Shown here piece by piece: positions 6,314-11,536 of a DNA stretch of 64,000 nucleotides; within the stretch, counting starts at the first letter, position 1; each line of letters starts with the position of its first letter. The notes under the pieces are model-generated. The model made no database searches and was not told the origin of the DNA. It worked only from the letters and a program-made list of their open reading frames with translations. The position numbers and the translations under genes were made by a program. This DNA is from Massilia sp. PAMC28688. GTDB lineage: Bacteria; Pseudomonadota; Gammaproteobacteria; Burkholderiales; Burkholderiaceae_D. The stretch is taken from the NCBI RefSeq assembly GCF_019443445.1, contig NZ_CP080378.1:4588001-4652000 (forward strand), given 5' to 3'.

Positions 6314-6627
6314 CTAACTGGGCAATGCATTTTCCCGCGCTAAAAGTCCCGGCTCAGCCTGTTCGGAGGCGCGAATCAAGTCAAGCGCCTGCTGTTCAGT
6401 GTAGATCATGGTGGTACCGATATCGCGATGGCCCAGCCAGCCGGCCACAGTGCGCAGATCGTGGCCAGTCATCAGTGCAGCCTTAGCAAAAGTGTGTCGA
6501 AGCCAATGGGGCGAGGCGGCAAGGATTTGTTCGCGACGTGCCATGTCGCCAACGGAAGCCAGAAAATCCGCTGTCTGCGCGATGCGGCCCTTGACGATCG
6601 CGTACAGGCTATGTCGGGAGGTTAGGG
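6314..6627 (-). pseudogene. C-terminal part of a tyrosine recombinase split by IS66
   Basis: This minus-strand piece carries the catalytic end of a phage-integrase-type recombinase: SPHWLRHTFAKAAL (HxxR), VAGWLGHRDIGTTMIYTEQ (LGH and the nucleophilic Tyr). The rest of the gene is at 9734-10681. Removing the IS66 element (6628-9733) and one 8-bp target duplication joins the halves in the same frame, giving a protein of about 417 residues in which the junction reads FGAWRALT/SRHSLYAIV. The gene is therefore broken only by the IS. As it stands the C-terminal part lacks its own start, apart from codons read out of the IS end. Confidence 0.88.
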
Positions 6628-6674
6628 GTAAGCGTGACGCCAGCACCGTCTGGACGCAAGTAGGCATGCCCGCC

Positions 6675-6712
6675 AAAGTAGTTCCCACTACTTTTATGAT
6701 GGGAACTACTTT
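6675..6712 (+). promoter_or_regulatory. hairpin enclosing the tnpA start codon
   Basis: Perfect 13-bp inverted repeat: AAAGTAGTTCCCA at 6675-6687 pairs with TGGGAACTACTTT at 6700-6712. The 12-nt loop contains the candidate ATG at 6696. In RNA read from outside promoters this structure could hide the start codon and ribosome-binding region, a known way for insertion sequences to avoid being switched on by flanking transcription. The role is inferred; the repeat itself is exact. Confidence 0.5.
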
Positions 6713-7103
6713 GGATACTGAAATGAAGCCGGGAAACCGGAAAGGGCGGCCGAACTATCCGGTCGAGTTCAAGCGGCGCCTTGCCGCTGCGGCGTGCGAA
6801 GCCGGGGTGTCGGTTTCGAAGCTTTCGATGGCCAACGGCGTCAACGCCAACATGGTGTTCAAGTGGCGCCGCGAGTATCGCGCAGGTCTCTTTGACAATA
6901 TACCGGACGCAAGCACAACGTTGCTGCCGGTCGTTATTGCGGATACTCCGTTGATGGTGGCGCCGGCGGTGATCGCCCAAGCGGCGTCGCCTGCCGCCAA
7001 CCTGAGCACGGTCGAGATCATCTTCGCCGACGCGGTCGTGCGTGTTCACGAGGGCGTCGACGCTGCGCTGCTCAGAACGATCTTCCAGAGTCTGCGACCA
7101 TGA
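6696..7103 (+). CDS. tnpA: IS66 accessory protein TnpA (OrfA)
   Basis: 135-residue small basic protein with an N-terminal helix-turn-helix region (RPNYPVEFKRRLAAAACEAG, VNANMVFKWRREYR), as in the first ORF of IS66 elements. It probably binds element ends or helps regulate transposition; its precise function is not established. An ATG at 6696 or 6699 is likely; both lie in the hairpin loop described separately. The stop overlaps the tnpB start by four bases (ATGA). Confidence 0.88.
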   Translation: MMGTTLDTEMKPGNRKGRPNYPVEFKRRLAAAACEAGVSVSKLSMANGVNANMVFKWRREYRAGLFDNIPDASTTLLPVVIADTPLMVAPAVIAQAASPAANLSTVEIIFADAVVRVHEGVDAALLRTIFQSLRP

Positions 7104-7447
7104 TCGGGCTGCCGGCGGGCACACGTATCTGGATCGCTGCAGGCTTCACGGATATGCGCTGCGGCTTTAACGGCCTGGCGGCCAAGGTGGAGAGTGCGTT
7201 GCTGGACGACCCATTCAGCGGCCACGTGTTCGCGTTCCGTGGTCGGCGCGGCAACGTCATCAAGTTGCTGTGGTCCAGTGGCGATGGCCTGTGCATGTTC
7301 GCCAAGCGCCTCGAGCATGGCCGCTTCGTCTGGCCGCAAGCAACCGACGGCAAGGTCCATCTGACGCCGGCCCAACTGTCGATGCTCCTCGAAGGCATCA
7401 ACTGGAAACAGCCCGAACGCACCGCGCCCCTCATGTCGGTGTTGTAA
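7100..7447 (+). CDS. tnpB: IS66 accessory protein TnpB (OrfB)
   Basis: 115 residues, recognisable by the conserved IS66 OrfB pattern: PAGTRIWIAAGFTDMRCGFN, HVFAFRGRRGNVIKLLWS and ERGRFVWPQ-like text (here EHGRFVWPQ). It is full length for the family and translationally coupled to tnpA. Its biochemical role in transposition is unclear in the family. Confidence 0.93.
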   Translation: MIGLPAGTRIWIAAGFTDMRCGFNGLAAKVESALLDDPFSGHVFAFRGRRGNVIKLLWSSGDGLCMFAKRLEHGRFVWPQATDGKVHLTPAQLSMLLEGINWKQPERTAPLMSVL

Positions 7448-7476
7448 ACGTTTAAACATGCGCGTAAACTGCGCGC

Positions 7477-9699: not shown

Positions 9700-9733
9700 G
9701 CGGGCGTCAAGACGGTACTGATGCCACGCTTAC

Positions 9734-10681
9734 GGTTAGGGCGCGCCAGGCGCCAAAATCACGTCGTGCTGCCATCGACTTGATTGCCAGGCCGCCTGAG
9801 GTGGTTACACCCTTGCGAGTGCGGGGCGACAACAATAGTGGAGTCTCGTCCGACGGCAATGGAAGTGCGGTCAGTCCAAACGCCTTTCGGTACGCCATCA
9901 AGGCCACGAGTGCAGTCTTCGTCACTGGGATCTTGCGCTCGATGTTGCCTTTGGCGGTCTCTTGTTCAATATGCATGATCCAGTATGTGTGGCCTGACTT
10001 GGGATCGGACAGTGGCTGAAACGCGCCCATGGTCGCTTTGATGAATTCGGTCGTACGCAGTCCCAGTTCACGCAATCCAATCAACACAAATCTGTCGCGC
10101 ACGTAGCGCTGCCGCTGCTCGAATGTGAGCTTTTCCTCAGCTTCCATGGTTTCGAGCACCACCCCGTATAAATCAAGGGGCACGGCACGGTTTGCGTTCA
10201 CTTTGCGCTGAGTGCCGGCGCCGTGGAAACCCATAGGGTTCATCCCAATGTAGCCCACCTCCCGCCAGGCACGGTACATGGCGTGCACGCAGCGTTGCAG
10301 GTCGGACTGGCTGCTGGCCGACGGCTTGCAGCGAAACGGCGTGTATCCAGCCTCGTCAGCACGGGCAAACCGGTAGCCATCATGCGCGCATATGGCGGTT
10401 TCCGGTAAGTCTCTCAAATATTCGAAGAATGCGGTGACATCAGGCATGACCCAGCGTGATGGCGGCTTTCCTGCGACGTTGTCACAGTACCACCGCAGTT
10501 TGGCCAGGTGATAACGGTACGTCGCGACGGTTTCAGGGGATCCTTTTTTGGGACGGCTCCCGATTGCCCGGAGCCAGACTTCTGCAGCTTCCCAATCGTC
10601 GGCGACTACGCCCAAACCATGCTGCGGCCGTGCGACCTCTACGGTGACTGACGACGCCACCATCGGTGCAATGCTACTCAT
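9734..10681 (-). pseudogene. N-terminal part of a tyrosine recombinase split by IS66
   Basis: 316 codons of host sequence followed by a few IS-encoded residues. An N-terminal SAM-like core-binding domain is visible (TVATYRYHLAKLRWYCD, VTAFFEYLRDLP). The catalytic domain then begins with the first catalytic Arg (RELGLRTTEF) and the beta-hairpin Lys (ETAKGNIERKIPV). The HxxR, LGH and Tyr motifs are on the other side of the IS66 element (6314-6627). Its start codon overlaps the stop of the KfrA-like gene at 10678-10681 (ATGA), so the two proteins are translationally coupled and presumably work together. Possible roles are cointegrate resolution or integration; see findings. Confidence 0.9.
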
Positions 10682-11451
10682 GTATGTTCCTTCGCAACCG
10701 CTAATGCCGCTGCCAGGTTAGCCCGCCGCATGGTGTCCAGCGTCTGTGCATCGCGGGCCTGCTGCAGCTCCAGATTCGCACAGCGCTCCTTCCAGGTCCT
10801 CACTTCACCACGCGCATCGTCAATGCTCATCAATGAAAACTTTCTCATTTCGTCACCACTTTGCACCATCTTGTCGATAATCTGGGTCAGCTGATCATTC
10901 TTTTCGCGCAAAGCTTCGCATTCAATGCGATATTGTTCAGCACTTGTACGGGCCGCCGCCGACTCAGCGGCTGCGGTGGTGGCCAGGCTACGGAGAAGGG
11001 TGAGCTCTCGCTCAGCTTGCTCTAGCGCATGCTGAAAGTAGTCGAGCTGAGCGTTCTGCATATGCTCGGCAGTACCGAGGACGGCGCTCATTTTCCGATC
11101 GAGAGCCGCAATAGCGGCATTCGTCGTCAGCATTGAAGCGTCGGGCTCGGTGAACTCAGGCGGATCGGTGGCCGGTACAACACGCCTATGAAGCAACTGT
11201 TCAGCCTGTTGCCTCTCGCGCGCCAACGTGGCCATCGAAGGCCGTCTCTGGGGCGAATACGCATCCATCAGTCTCCGATAGATTTCTGGGCTGAACAGAC
11301 GGCCTGTTGCCCCAAACACCAATGCAATGAACGAGCGGACGTAAGGCCGGTGGCTACGCGCGTCGATTGGAATGGTCGCATCAAGCTCCATAACGCCGCG
11401 GGCGATGTGTGCTGCTTGCTGGTCGGTAAGCTGGAACGGAGGGCGCGGCAT
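10678..11451 (-). CDS. KfrA/TnpT-like DNA-binding coiled-coil protein, recombinase partner
   Basis: 257 residues from the ATG at 11451, preferred over an upstream TTG at 11502 because the recognisable part starts MPRPPFQLTDQQ. Residues 1-90 form a predicted helical DNA-binding domain like that of KfrA. Residues ~95-250 are a long coiled coil (ALEQAERELTLLRSLATTAAAESAAA, CEALREKNDQLTQIIDKM). TnpT, the auxiliary protein that works with tyrosine recombinase TnpS in Tn4651 cointegrate resolution, has a similar design. Here the gene is directly upstream of, and coupled to, the tyrosine recombinase. A perfect palindrome lies 62 bp upstream. It is probably an accessory or architectural factor for that recombinase; plasmid KfrA-like regulation is the alternative. 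Confidence 0.6.
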   Translation of the reverse strand: MPRPPFQLTDQQAAHIARGVMELDATIPIDARSHRPYVRSFIALVFGATGRLFSPEIYRRLMDAYSPQRRPSMATLARERQQAEQLLHRRVVPATDPPEFTEPDASMLTTNAAIAALDRKMSAVLGTAEHMQNAQLDYFQHALEQAERELTLLRSLATTAAAESAAARTSAEQYRIECEALREKNDQLTQIIDKMVQSGDEMRKFSLMSIDDARGEVRTWKERCANLELQQARDAQTLDTMRRANLAAALAVAKEHT

Positions 11452-11512
11452 AAAAAAACGAGGTTGAGCAGTGATAATAACCGTTATAAATATCACGGTC
11501 AATCGTGTGTAA

Positions 11513-11536
11513 TCAACTTAGTCCGAGCTAAGTTGA
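11513..11536. repeat. 24-bp palindrome with 6-bp centre, candidate recombination core site
   Basis: TCAACTTAG (11513-11521) and CTAAGTTGA (11528-11536) are perfect 9-bp inverted arms separated by the hexamer TCCGAG. This geometry of two recombinase arms around a 6-8 bp asymmetric centre is what tyrosine recombinases use (for example dif, lox and rst sites). It lies immediately upstream of the KfrA-like/recombinase pair. An operator for that operon is the alternative. Confidence 0.5.

What the first reader, a model, noticed from the sequence alone, without database searches (positions are those of the whole stretch)
6314..11536. Tyrosine recombinase, KfrA-like partner and 9-6-9 palindrome: candidate cointegrate-resolution system of a Tn7-like element
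Directly after tniQ lies a two-gene module (coiled-coil DNA-binding protein and tyrosine recombinase, ATGA-coupled) with a perfect 9-bp inverted repeat around a 6-bp centre 62 bp upstream. Tn4651 uses a similar pair, TnpS/TnpT, and a palindromic core site to resolve cointegrates. The adjacent TnsA has Arg in place of the catalytic Lys, which would favour replicative transposition and so require a resolver. Resolution by a tyrosine recombinase would be unusual for a Tn7-like element.
Basis: partly seen in the sequence, partly recalled or inferred. Interest (0 to 1): 0.72.

Follow-up and report, generated by a model that had tools for sequence, protein, structure and literature searches.

The report
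Recombinase module inside Tn7-like transposon
A jumping DNA element related to Tn7, whose self-excision enzyme looks inactive, carries a two-gene recombination module with its own DNA site that most likely separates fused DNA molecules after the element copies itself, although this particular copy has been broken by another insertion.

Summary
Downstream of tniQ lie a tyrosine recombinase gene (split by an IS66 insertion), an ATGA-coupled coiled-coil partner, and a perfect 9-6-9 inverted repeat. In 16 of 25 related loci scanned, the three parts appear as one unit; the arms of the repeat covary and its centre is asymmetric. In Janthinobacterium plasmids, 94-95% identity begins at this site in 7 of 10 pairs, as expected of a crossover site. 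I found the transposon left end (window 23885-23960) beyond the module, so the module lies inside the element. The tniQ-recombinase-partner order recurs in four other loci, two of them with a broken or truncated tniQ. TnsA has lost its catalytic acidic residue and Lys, as in nearly all its relatives here. Relatives carry other tyrosine recombinases in the slot after tniQ, including true Tn4651-type TnpS/TnpT. Cointegrate resolution is the best explanation (about 0.7). It is not unprecedented: Benler et al. 2021 already described tyrosine resolvases in Tn7-like elements lacking tnsA. The module is more often found without tns genes nearby (20 of 28 loci), and its proteins are not TnpS/TnpT family members. 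I rate it a new variant of a known kind. No function was tested.

The parts
1164..1793 (+). tnsA (element 1), predicted nuclease-dead: the E-V/I-K motif of distant relatives reads L-L-R
1790..3775 (+). tnsB (element 1), DDE transposase
   Evidence: (Mu-transpos_C and rve, both below cut-off)
3788..4765 (+). tnsC (element 1), AAA ATPase
   Evidence: (AAA_22 5e-9)
4772..6283 (+). tniQ (element 1)
   Evidence: named by position and by homology within the group; no Pfam match, no NCBIfam match
6314..6627 (-). tyrosine recombinase, C-terminal piece (HxxR, H, Y boxes), 30 bp from the end of tniQ; includes the 8-bp duplication
6628..9733 (+). IS66 insertion splitting the recombinase gene; GGTTAGGG at 6620-6627 and 9734-9741
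9742..10681 (-). tyrosine recombinase, N-terminal piece
10678..11452 (-). coiled-coil partner gene, ATGA-coupled to the recombinase (alternative TTG start at 11502)
11471..11496 (.). second, weaker inverted repeat (GTGATA...TATCAC) between the core palindrome and the partner gene; candidate operator or accessory site, not tested across relatives
   Evidence: seen in the sequence
11513..11536 (.). 9-6-9 palindrome; in relatives a 12-13 bp arm / 8-bp asymmetric centre / 12-13 bp arm site; proposed recombination core
23885..23960 (-). left end of element 1: two strong TnsB-site-like repeats 52 bp apart (23+29) with a degenerate middle site (read by eye), terminus CGTGCAGCGAAG outside to inside
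23961..23975 (+). 15 bp between elements 1 and 2; the last five bases GCGTT are the target duplication of element 2
23976..29514 (+). right end and tnsABC-tniQ of element 2 (tnsA 24143-24787, tnsB 24917-26968, tnsC 26985-27962, tniQ to 29514); its left end is outside the window at G000:C1:4699205 with the same GCGTT

Best explanation
The recombinase, its coiled-coil partner and the palindrome are a self-contained tyrosine-recombinase resolution module carried inside a Tn7-like transposon, between tniQ and the left end. Shown here by sequence: the three parts are conserved together, the module is inside the element, TnsA has lost catalytic residues, and other tyrosine recombinases take the same slot in relatives. 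Inferred: without TnsA cutting, TnsB and TnsC insert the element replicatively and leave a cointegrate with two element copies. The recombinase, helped by the partner, then synapses the two copies of the palindrome and exchanges strands in the 8-bp asymmetric centre, which separates donor from target. The same module works on plasmids without tns genes, probably resolving multimers or cointegrates. In this genome the window copy is inactive because the recombinase gene is split.
For: Position: tniQ followed by convergent recombinase and partner in the window, G392/L070, G238 (L049 and L065, two contigs meeting inside tniQ), G232/L046 (tniQ truncated, no tnsABC) and Massilia sp. WG5/L003 (tniQ apparently broken, no tnsABC in the flank). 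The gap between tniQ and recombinase is 30, 75 and 65 bp in the window, L070 and L046, with no end-like repeats found in L070 or L046. The left end lies beyond the palindrome, in the same orientation, in the window (23885-23960), WG5 (about 1.1 kb away), G232 (about 10 kb), G392 (about 49 kb) and, without any tniQ found, the M. putida plasmid (about 105 kb). Site: 16 aligned sites show 89.1% paired cells and 9 of 12 pairs with changes on both sides, against 70.0% and 5.4 in shuffles (sites were picked partly for symmetry). Each of 10 genomes or plasmid records searched holds one place with the TACTTA-N8-TAAGTA form (the reversed control pattern matched twice in all). In 7 of 10 pairs of Janthinobacterium modules, 94-95% identity over 3 kb begins 6-16 bp left of the centre, with no further match in register at E 1e-10. 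Catalytic R, K, HxxR, H and Y are invariant in 14 intact relatives. TnsA: acidic residue lost in 23 of 23 and Lys in 22 of 23 rows from this family, some near duplicates. Same slot, other modules: TnpT/TnpS about 0.13 kb after tniQ in L068, other recombinases about 2 kb after tniQ in L113, L114 and L115. Precedent: Benler 2021.
Against: No recombination, resolution or transposition was tested. Of 28 loci with the pair, 20 show no tns or tniQ match in the held flanks (some loci are duplicates). The nearest TnsC relative, M. norwichensis, has no recombinase found after tniQ. Element 2 in the same genome has its module near the left end, not after tniQ, and also carries TnpS/TnpT homologues. Palindromes were found in 14 of 23 upstream regions at the first threshold and in arm/centre form in 16 of 25 loci; L004 (in the stretch scanned), L008, L009 (diverged), L010, L047, L050, L052, L055 and L056 lack it there. 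The distance to the partner gene is about 57-66 bp in 9 of the 16 and 120-265 bp in the rest. The window palindrome is shorter than the 12-13 bp arms of its relatives. The right end of element 1 was not found. In the Tn7-linked lineage itself similarity does not stop at the site but fades over about 40-80 bp.
Confidence: 0.7

Rival explanations
1. Plasmid multimer- or cointegrate-resolution module picked up as a passenger: it works as in the tns-free plasmids and has no particular role in transposition.
For: Eight of nine annotated plasmid loci with the pair show no tns or tniQ match, and four of them (L005, L007, L008, L009) lie near replication or partition genes. The recombinase tree places the tniQ-linked group inside a wider family of tns-free copies. 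The pair stays intact where tniQ is truncated (L046).
Against: Recurrent placement directly after tniQ in five loci, other recombinases in the same slot, and loss of TnsA catalytic residues in the clade. The five fall in one recombinase clade, so they may be a single acquisition. The chemistry would be the same; only the benefit differs.
Confidence: 0.2
2. Target selector: the recombinase-partner pair directs the transposon to its target, as the inactive tyrosine recombinase TnsF does in Tn6022.
For: Adjacency to tniQ; TnsF precedent (Faure 2023, PMC10293859, passages read).
Against: TnsF lacks the catalytic part; here R, K, HxxR, H and Y are invariant, the gene faces tniQ instead of following it in one operon, and the module exists without tns genes.
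Confidence: 0.04
3. The palindrome is only an operator for the coiled-coil partner and not a crossover site.
For: Position about 57-66 bp before the partner gene in 9 of 16 loci; coiled-coil DNA-binding partners often repress themselves (recalled).
Against: Asymmetric conserved 8-bp centre flanked by inverted arms, identity blocks that start at the site in Janthinobacterium plasmids, and a distance of about 200 bp or more in six loci.
Confidence: 0.06

Closest known systems
TnpS/TnpT-rst cointegrate resolution of Tn4651 (Tn3 family)
   Same: Tyrosine recombinase plus helper protein, inverted-repeat core next to the genes (PMC7157771, passages read)
   Different: TnpS and TnpT are divergent with rst between them; here the two genes are one operon with the site in front. 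Profile comparisons give hhalign probabilities of 6.6 (recombinase; 45 columns around the catalytic boxes) and 4.4 (partner), so no family membership
Tyrosine resolvase (tnsR) of tnsA-less Tn7-like transposons, Benler et al. 2021
   Same: Tyrosine recombinase linked to loss of TnsA function in a Tn7-like element; same proposed role (PMC8649781, passages read)
   Different: Here tnsA is kept but degenerate, and the recombinase has an operon partner and a candidate core site; KfrA has no occurrence in that main text
Tn5053/Tn402 TniR-res
   Same: Tn7 relative without TnsA that resolves cointegrates by a site-specific recombinase (PMC11406308, passages)
   Different: TniR is a serine recombinase (recalled)
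TnsF of Tn6022
   Same: Tyrosine recombinase fold protein working with TniQ
   Different: Inactive, acts in target choice (PMC10293859, passages)
Xer/dif and plasmid multimer resolution
   Same: Site of inverted arms around a short centre (recalled); XerC is the best NCBIfam match of two intact relatives, far below its cut-off
   Different: Single dedicated recombinase of about 416 aa with a partner gene

Membership tests
Tn7-like transposon | TnsB and TnsC with TnsA and/or TniQ (definition as in PMC11406308) | tested here: met
   TniQ named by homology within the group only
Tn7-like transposon | Ends with several TnsB-site repeats and 5-bp target duplication | tested here: met
   Element 2: both ends and GCGTT on both sides. 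Element 1: left end found, right end not found
Tn7-like cut-and-paste element | Intact TnsA catalytic residues | tested here: not met
Tyrosine recombinase | R, K, HxxR, H/W and Y residues | tested here: met
   Invariant in 14 intact relatives; Phage_integrase matches the window C-terminal piece
TnpS/TnpT resolution system | Sequence homology to TnpS and TnpT | tested here: not met
TnpS/TnpT resolution system | Divergent genes with the site between them | tested here: not met
   Co-directional overlapping genes
TnpS/TnpT resolution system | Resolution of cointegrates at the core inverted repeat | not testable with these tools
   -
KfrA family | KfrA_N domain (PF11740, number recalled) | tested here: not met
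   None of 14 members matched it at E 0.05
Tn7-like tnsR of Benler et al. | Tyrosine recombinase inside the element ends | tested here: met
   Left end beyond the module; right end of element 1 not found
Tn7-like tnsR of Benler et al. | Placement in their clade 2 or 3 | not tested
   -

The most novel reading that the evidence does not exclude
The position after tniQ is a plug-in socket: Tn7-like elements of Oxalobacteraceae whose TnsA has lost its nuclease residues have repeatedly taken up unrelated tyrosine-recombinase resolution modules, including Tn4651-type TnpS/TnpT and a new operon-type recombinase-partner-palindrome module shared with large plasmids, whose half-sites recombine between plasmids.
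Probability: 0.55. Interest if true: 0.6.

Novelty: new variant of a known kind. Interest (0 to 1): 0.48.

Why it matters
It would give a compact, testable two-protein resolution system with a defined candidate core, and show how elements with a crippled cut-and-paste enzyme stay mobile by borrowing resolution modules that also live on plasmids. It would also extend the resolvase picture of Benler et al. from elements that lack tnsA to elements that keep a degenerate one.

Tried and rejected
A purely plasmid origin looked best, because the annotated plasmid relatives showed no tns genes; it was dropped when tblastn showed tniQ next to the pair in relatives. The reading that the element inserted beside a plasmid resolution site (res-site hunting, as in Tn5053) was tested by locating the ends: in this group the left end lies beyond the module, so the module is inside. 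It may still apply to G272, G284 and G238/L050, where another element ends about 1.1 kb after, or inside, such a module. A PDB search with the TnsA profile gave no TnsA hit. NCBIfam gave no match for the window TnsA, TnsB, TnsC, TniQ or partner. A megablast of window 1-12000 against the plasmid collection gave no match. Literature searches for Tn7-like with tyrosine recombinase, cointegrate, TniQ, TnsA, resolvase, TnpS, Tn5053 or KfrA showed, in their listings and in the passages I read of six papers, no description of this partner-plus-palindrome type; most subscription journals are not held. The recombinase tree used only the N-terminal piece for the window.
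Full report
What is there. The window lies at G000:C1:4588001-4652000 in a 5.46-Mb single-contig genome. From 1164 to 6283 run tnsA, tnsB, tnsC and tniQ. Then, on the other strand, come a tyrosine recombinase and an overlapping upstream gene for a coiled-coil protein. The recombinase is split by an IS66 insertion (6628-9733) with an 8-bp duplication, so this copy is not expected to be active. The palindrome is at 11513-11536, 60 bp before the likely ATG of the partner at 11452.

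The three parts are a unit. Sixteen of 25 module loci scanned have a site of two 12-bp arms, mostly matched, around an 8-bp asymmetric centre. The arms covary: 9 of 12 pairs changed on both sides, 89.1% of cells paired against 70.0% in shuffles, 0 of 500 shuffles as high. These 16 were selected partly by symmetry, and several are close relatives, so the figure leans towards the structure. In an earlier scan, 14 of 23 upstream regions held a scoring palindrome, against 4 of 460 shuffled ones. Loci without a site of this form were L004, L008, L009 (a diverged one), L010, L047, L050, L052, L055 and L056; a pattern search later found one in the L004 record, further upstream. The site is about 57-66 bp before the partner gene in 9 of the 16, at 120 bp in WG5 (about 62 with an upstream start), and at 201-263 bp in six. 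Searched over whole genomes or records, the TACTTA-arm form occurs at one place in each of 10, and the CTCAAC-arm form at one place in 4 of 6, at two in the M. putida plasmid and at none in G238, whose arms differ. Reversed control patterns matched twice and twice. Catalytic residues R, K, HxxR, H and Y are invariant in 14 intact recombinases.

A sign of past crossover. Among five Janthinobacterium modules, 7 of 10 pairwise alignments of 94-95% identity start 6-16 bp left of the centre, that is in or next to the left arm, and run about 3 kb through both genes; one starts at -43, and two (98% identical) at -122 and -168. The HH102 site looks like a hybrid: its left arm matches the arms of the own-2 and G011 lineage, its right arm its own group. 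This is what exchange in the centre would leave, though transfer of the module as a block could look similar. The Tn7-linked lineage shows no such sharp break: similarity fades over about 40-80 bp upstream.

Inside the transposon. Repeats like TGAAGNAAATGTGNGAC mark the ends. Left ends have three direct copies spaced 23 and 29-30 bp; right ends have a plus, minus, plus order in L064 and L050. The left end lies beyond the palindrome, in the same orientation, in Massilia sp. WG5, G232, G392 and the M. putida plasmid. In the window two strong sites 52 bp apart at 23885 and 23937 form the left end of element 1, so the module lies between tniQ and the left end. The right end of element 1 was not found in the 20 kb upstream. 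Fifteen bases on begins a second element that looks complete: right end at 23976 with the plus, minus, plus order, left end at G000:C1:4699205, GCGTT on both sides, about 87 kb long. It carries tnsABC-tniQ, efflux genes (Pfam; further metal-resistance genes read by eye), TnpS/TnpT homologues, a CBASS-like pair and a second, uninterrupted recombinase-partner pair 1.8 kb from its left end.

How often it goes with tniQ. I compared 16 elements whose TnsC is at least 53% identical to the window's: own 1 and 2, G346, G238, G370, G160, G279, G250, G206, G165, G058, G183, G161, G011 and G350 (partial TnsC), and G392. Seven have a tyrosine recombinase within 4 kb downstream of tniQ: three of the window type (own 1, G392, G238), one TnpT/TnpS (G206) and three others (G160 and G279, near-identical, and G250). 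G011 ends 0.75 kb after tniQ and cannot be judged. For G238 the order is inferred from two contigs that meet inside tniQ. The recombinases were sought with a profile built here and with TnpS; other kinds could be missed. Of 16 loci fetched for more distant TnsC (26-33% identical; L135-L150), 15 show tnsB, none a tnsA hit, and nine have a tyrosine recombinase match within about 5 kb downstream; for L145 this rests on the session profile alone, as Pfam shows only TniQ. In the other direction, 8 of 28 pair loci have a tns or tniQ match in the held flanks: L003, L045, L046, L049, L050, L058, L059 and L060. In L058-L060 and L050 these belong to an element lying beside the pair, not around it. In the recombinase tree the five tniQ-linked copies fall in one clade (support 1.0) that also holds M. 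putida, G270 and G201 without detected tniQ.

TnsA. In 23 aligned rows from this family, some near duplicates, the acidic residue of the E-V/I-K motif is lost in all and the Lys in all but L121; 6 of 7 distant TnsA keep the motif. Elements without TnsA form cointegrates (PMC11406308, passages); Benler et al. [quoted passage not shown]

What is known. Benler et al. 2021 (PMC8649781; passages read) state that Tn7-like clades 2 and 3 have branches without tnsA, that tyrosine or serine resolvases are prevalent there, and that these elements probably move replicatively. TnpS/TnpT-rst of Tn4651 is described in PMC7157771 (passages). The window proteins are not members of the TnpS and TnpT families by profile comparison, but the parts and the proposed work are alike.

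Verdict. A resolution module inside a Tn7-like element is the best-supported reading, at about 0.7, with the role in transposition inferred. It is a new variant of a known kind.

Noticed in passing
window 23976 to G000:C1:4699205: 87-kb Tn7-like element abutting element 1 (15 bp apart), with GCGTT duplication, metal-efflux cargo, TnpS/TnpT homologues (L152:16436-17452 -, 18943-19998 +) and a second recombinase-partner pair.
   Followed up: partly
L045:4573-7004 and 9764-10912: CBASS-like pair (DncV-like nucleotidyltransferase, patatin) and a 382-aa TnsC-like ATPase next to the second module near the left end of element 2.
   Followed up: no
L145:6852-9704 and L150:6675-9731: Open frames of 951 and 1019 aa that match TniQ and, by the session's own profile only, a tyrosine recombinase; Pfam shows only TniQ. 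Possible TniQ-TnsF-like fusions (compare PMC10293859).
   Followed up: partly
L059, L060 and L050: Other Tn7-like elements end about 1.1 kb after, or inside, a recombinase-partner module; could be targeting of resolution sites as known for Tn5053.
   Followed up: no
G000:C1:4568785-4568893: A right-end-like cluster of TnsB sites pointing the opposite way from elements 1 and 2; no tnsC relative was found there.
   Followed up: partly
W01 (NZ_CP019037.1):378937-378961: Second core-like site in the M. putida plasmid, with a centre like that of the window.
   Followed up: no
L070 (JANINJ010000011.1): Contig labelled Xanthobacteraceae carries a recombinase 95% identical to that of Massilia putida; possible mis-binning or recent transfer.
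   Followed up: no
L068:5804-8000, L142:8402-10582, L143:9800-12025: Tn4651-type TnpT/TnpS pairs (E about 1e-45 to 1e-128) within about 2 kb downstream of tniQ in other Tn7-like elements.
   Followed up: partly
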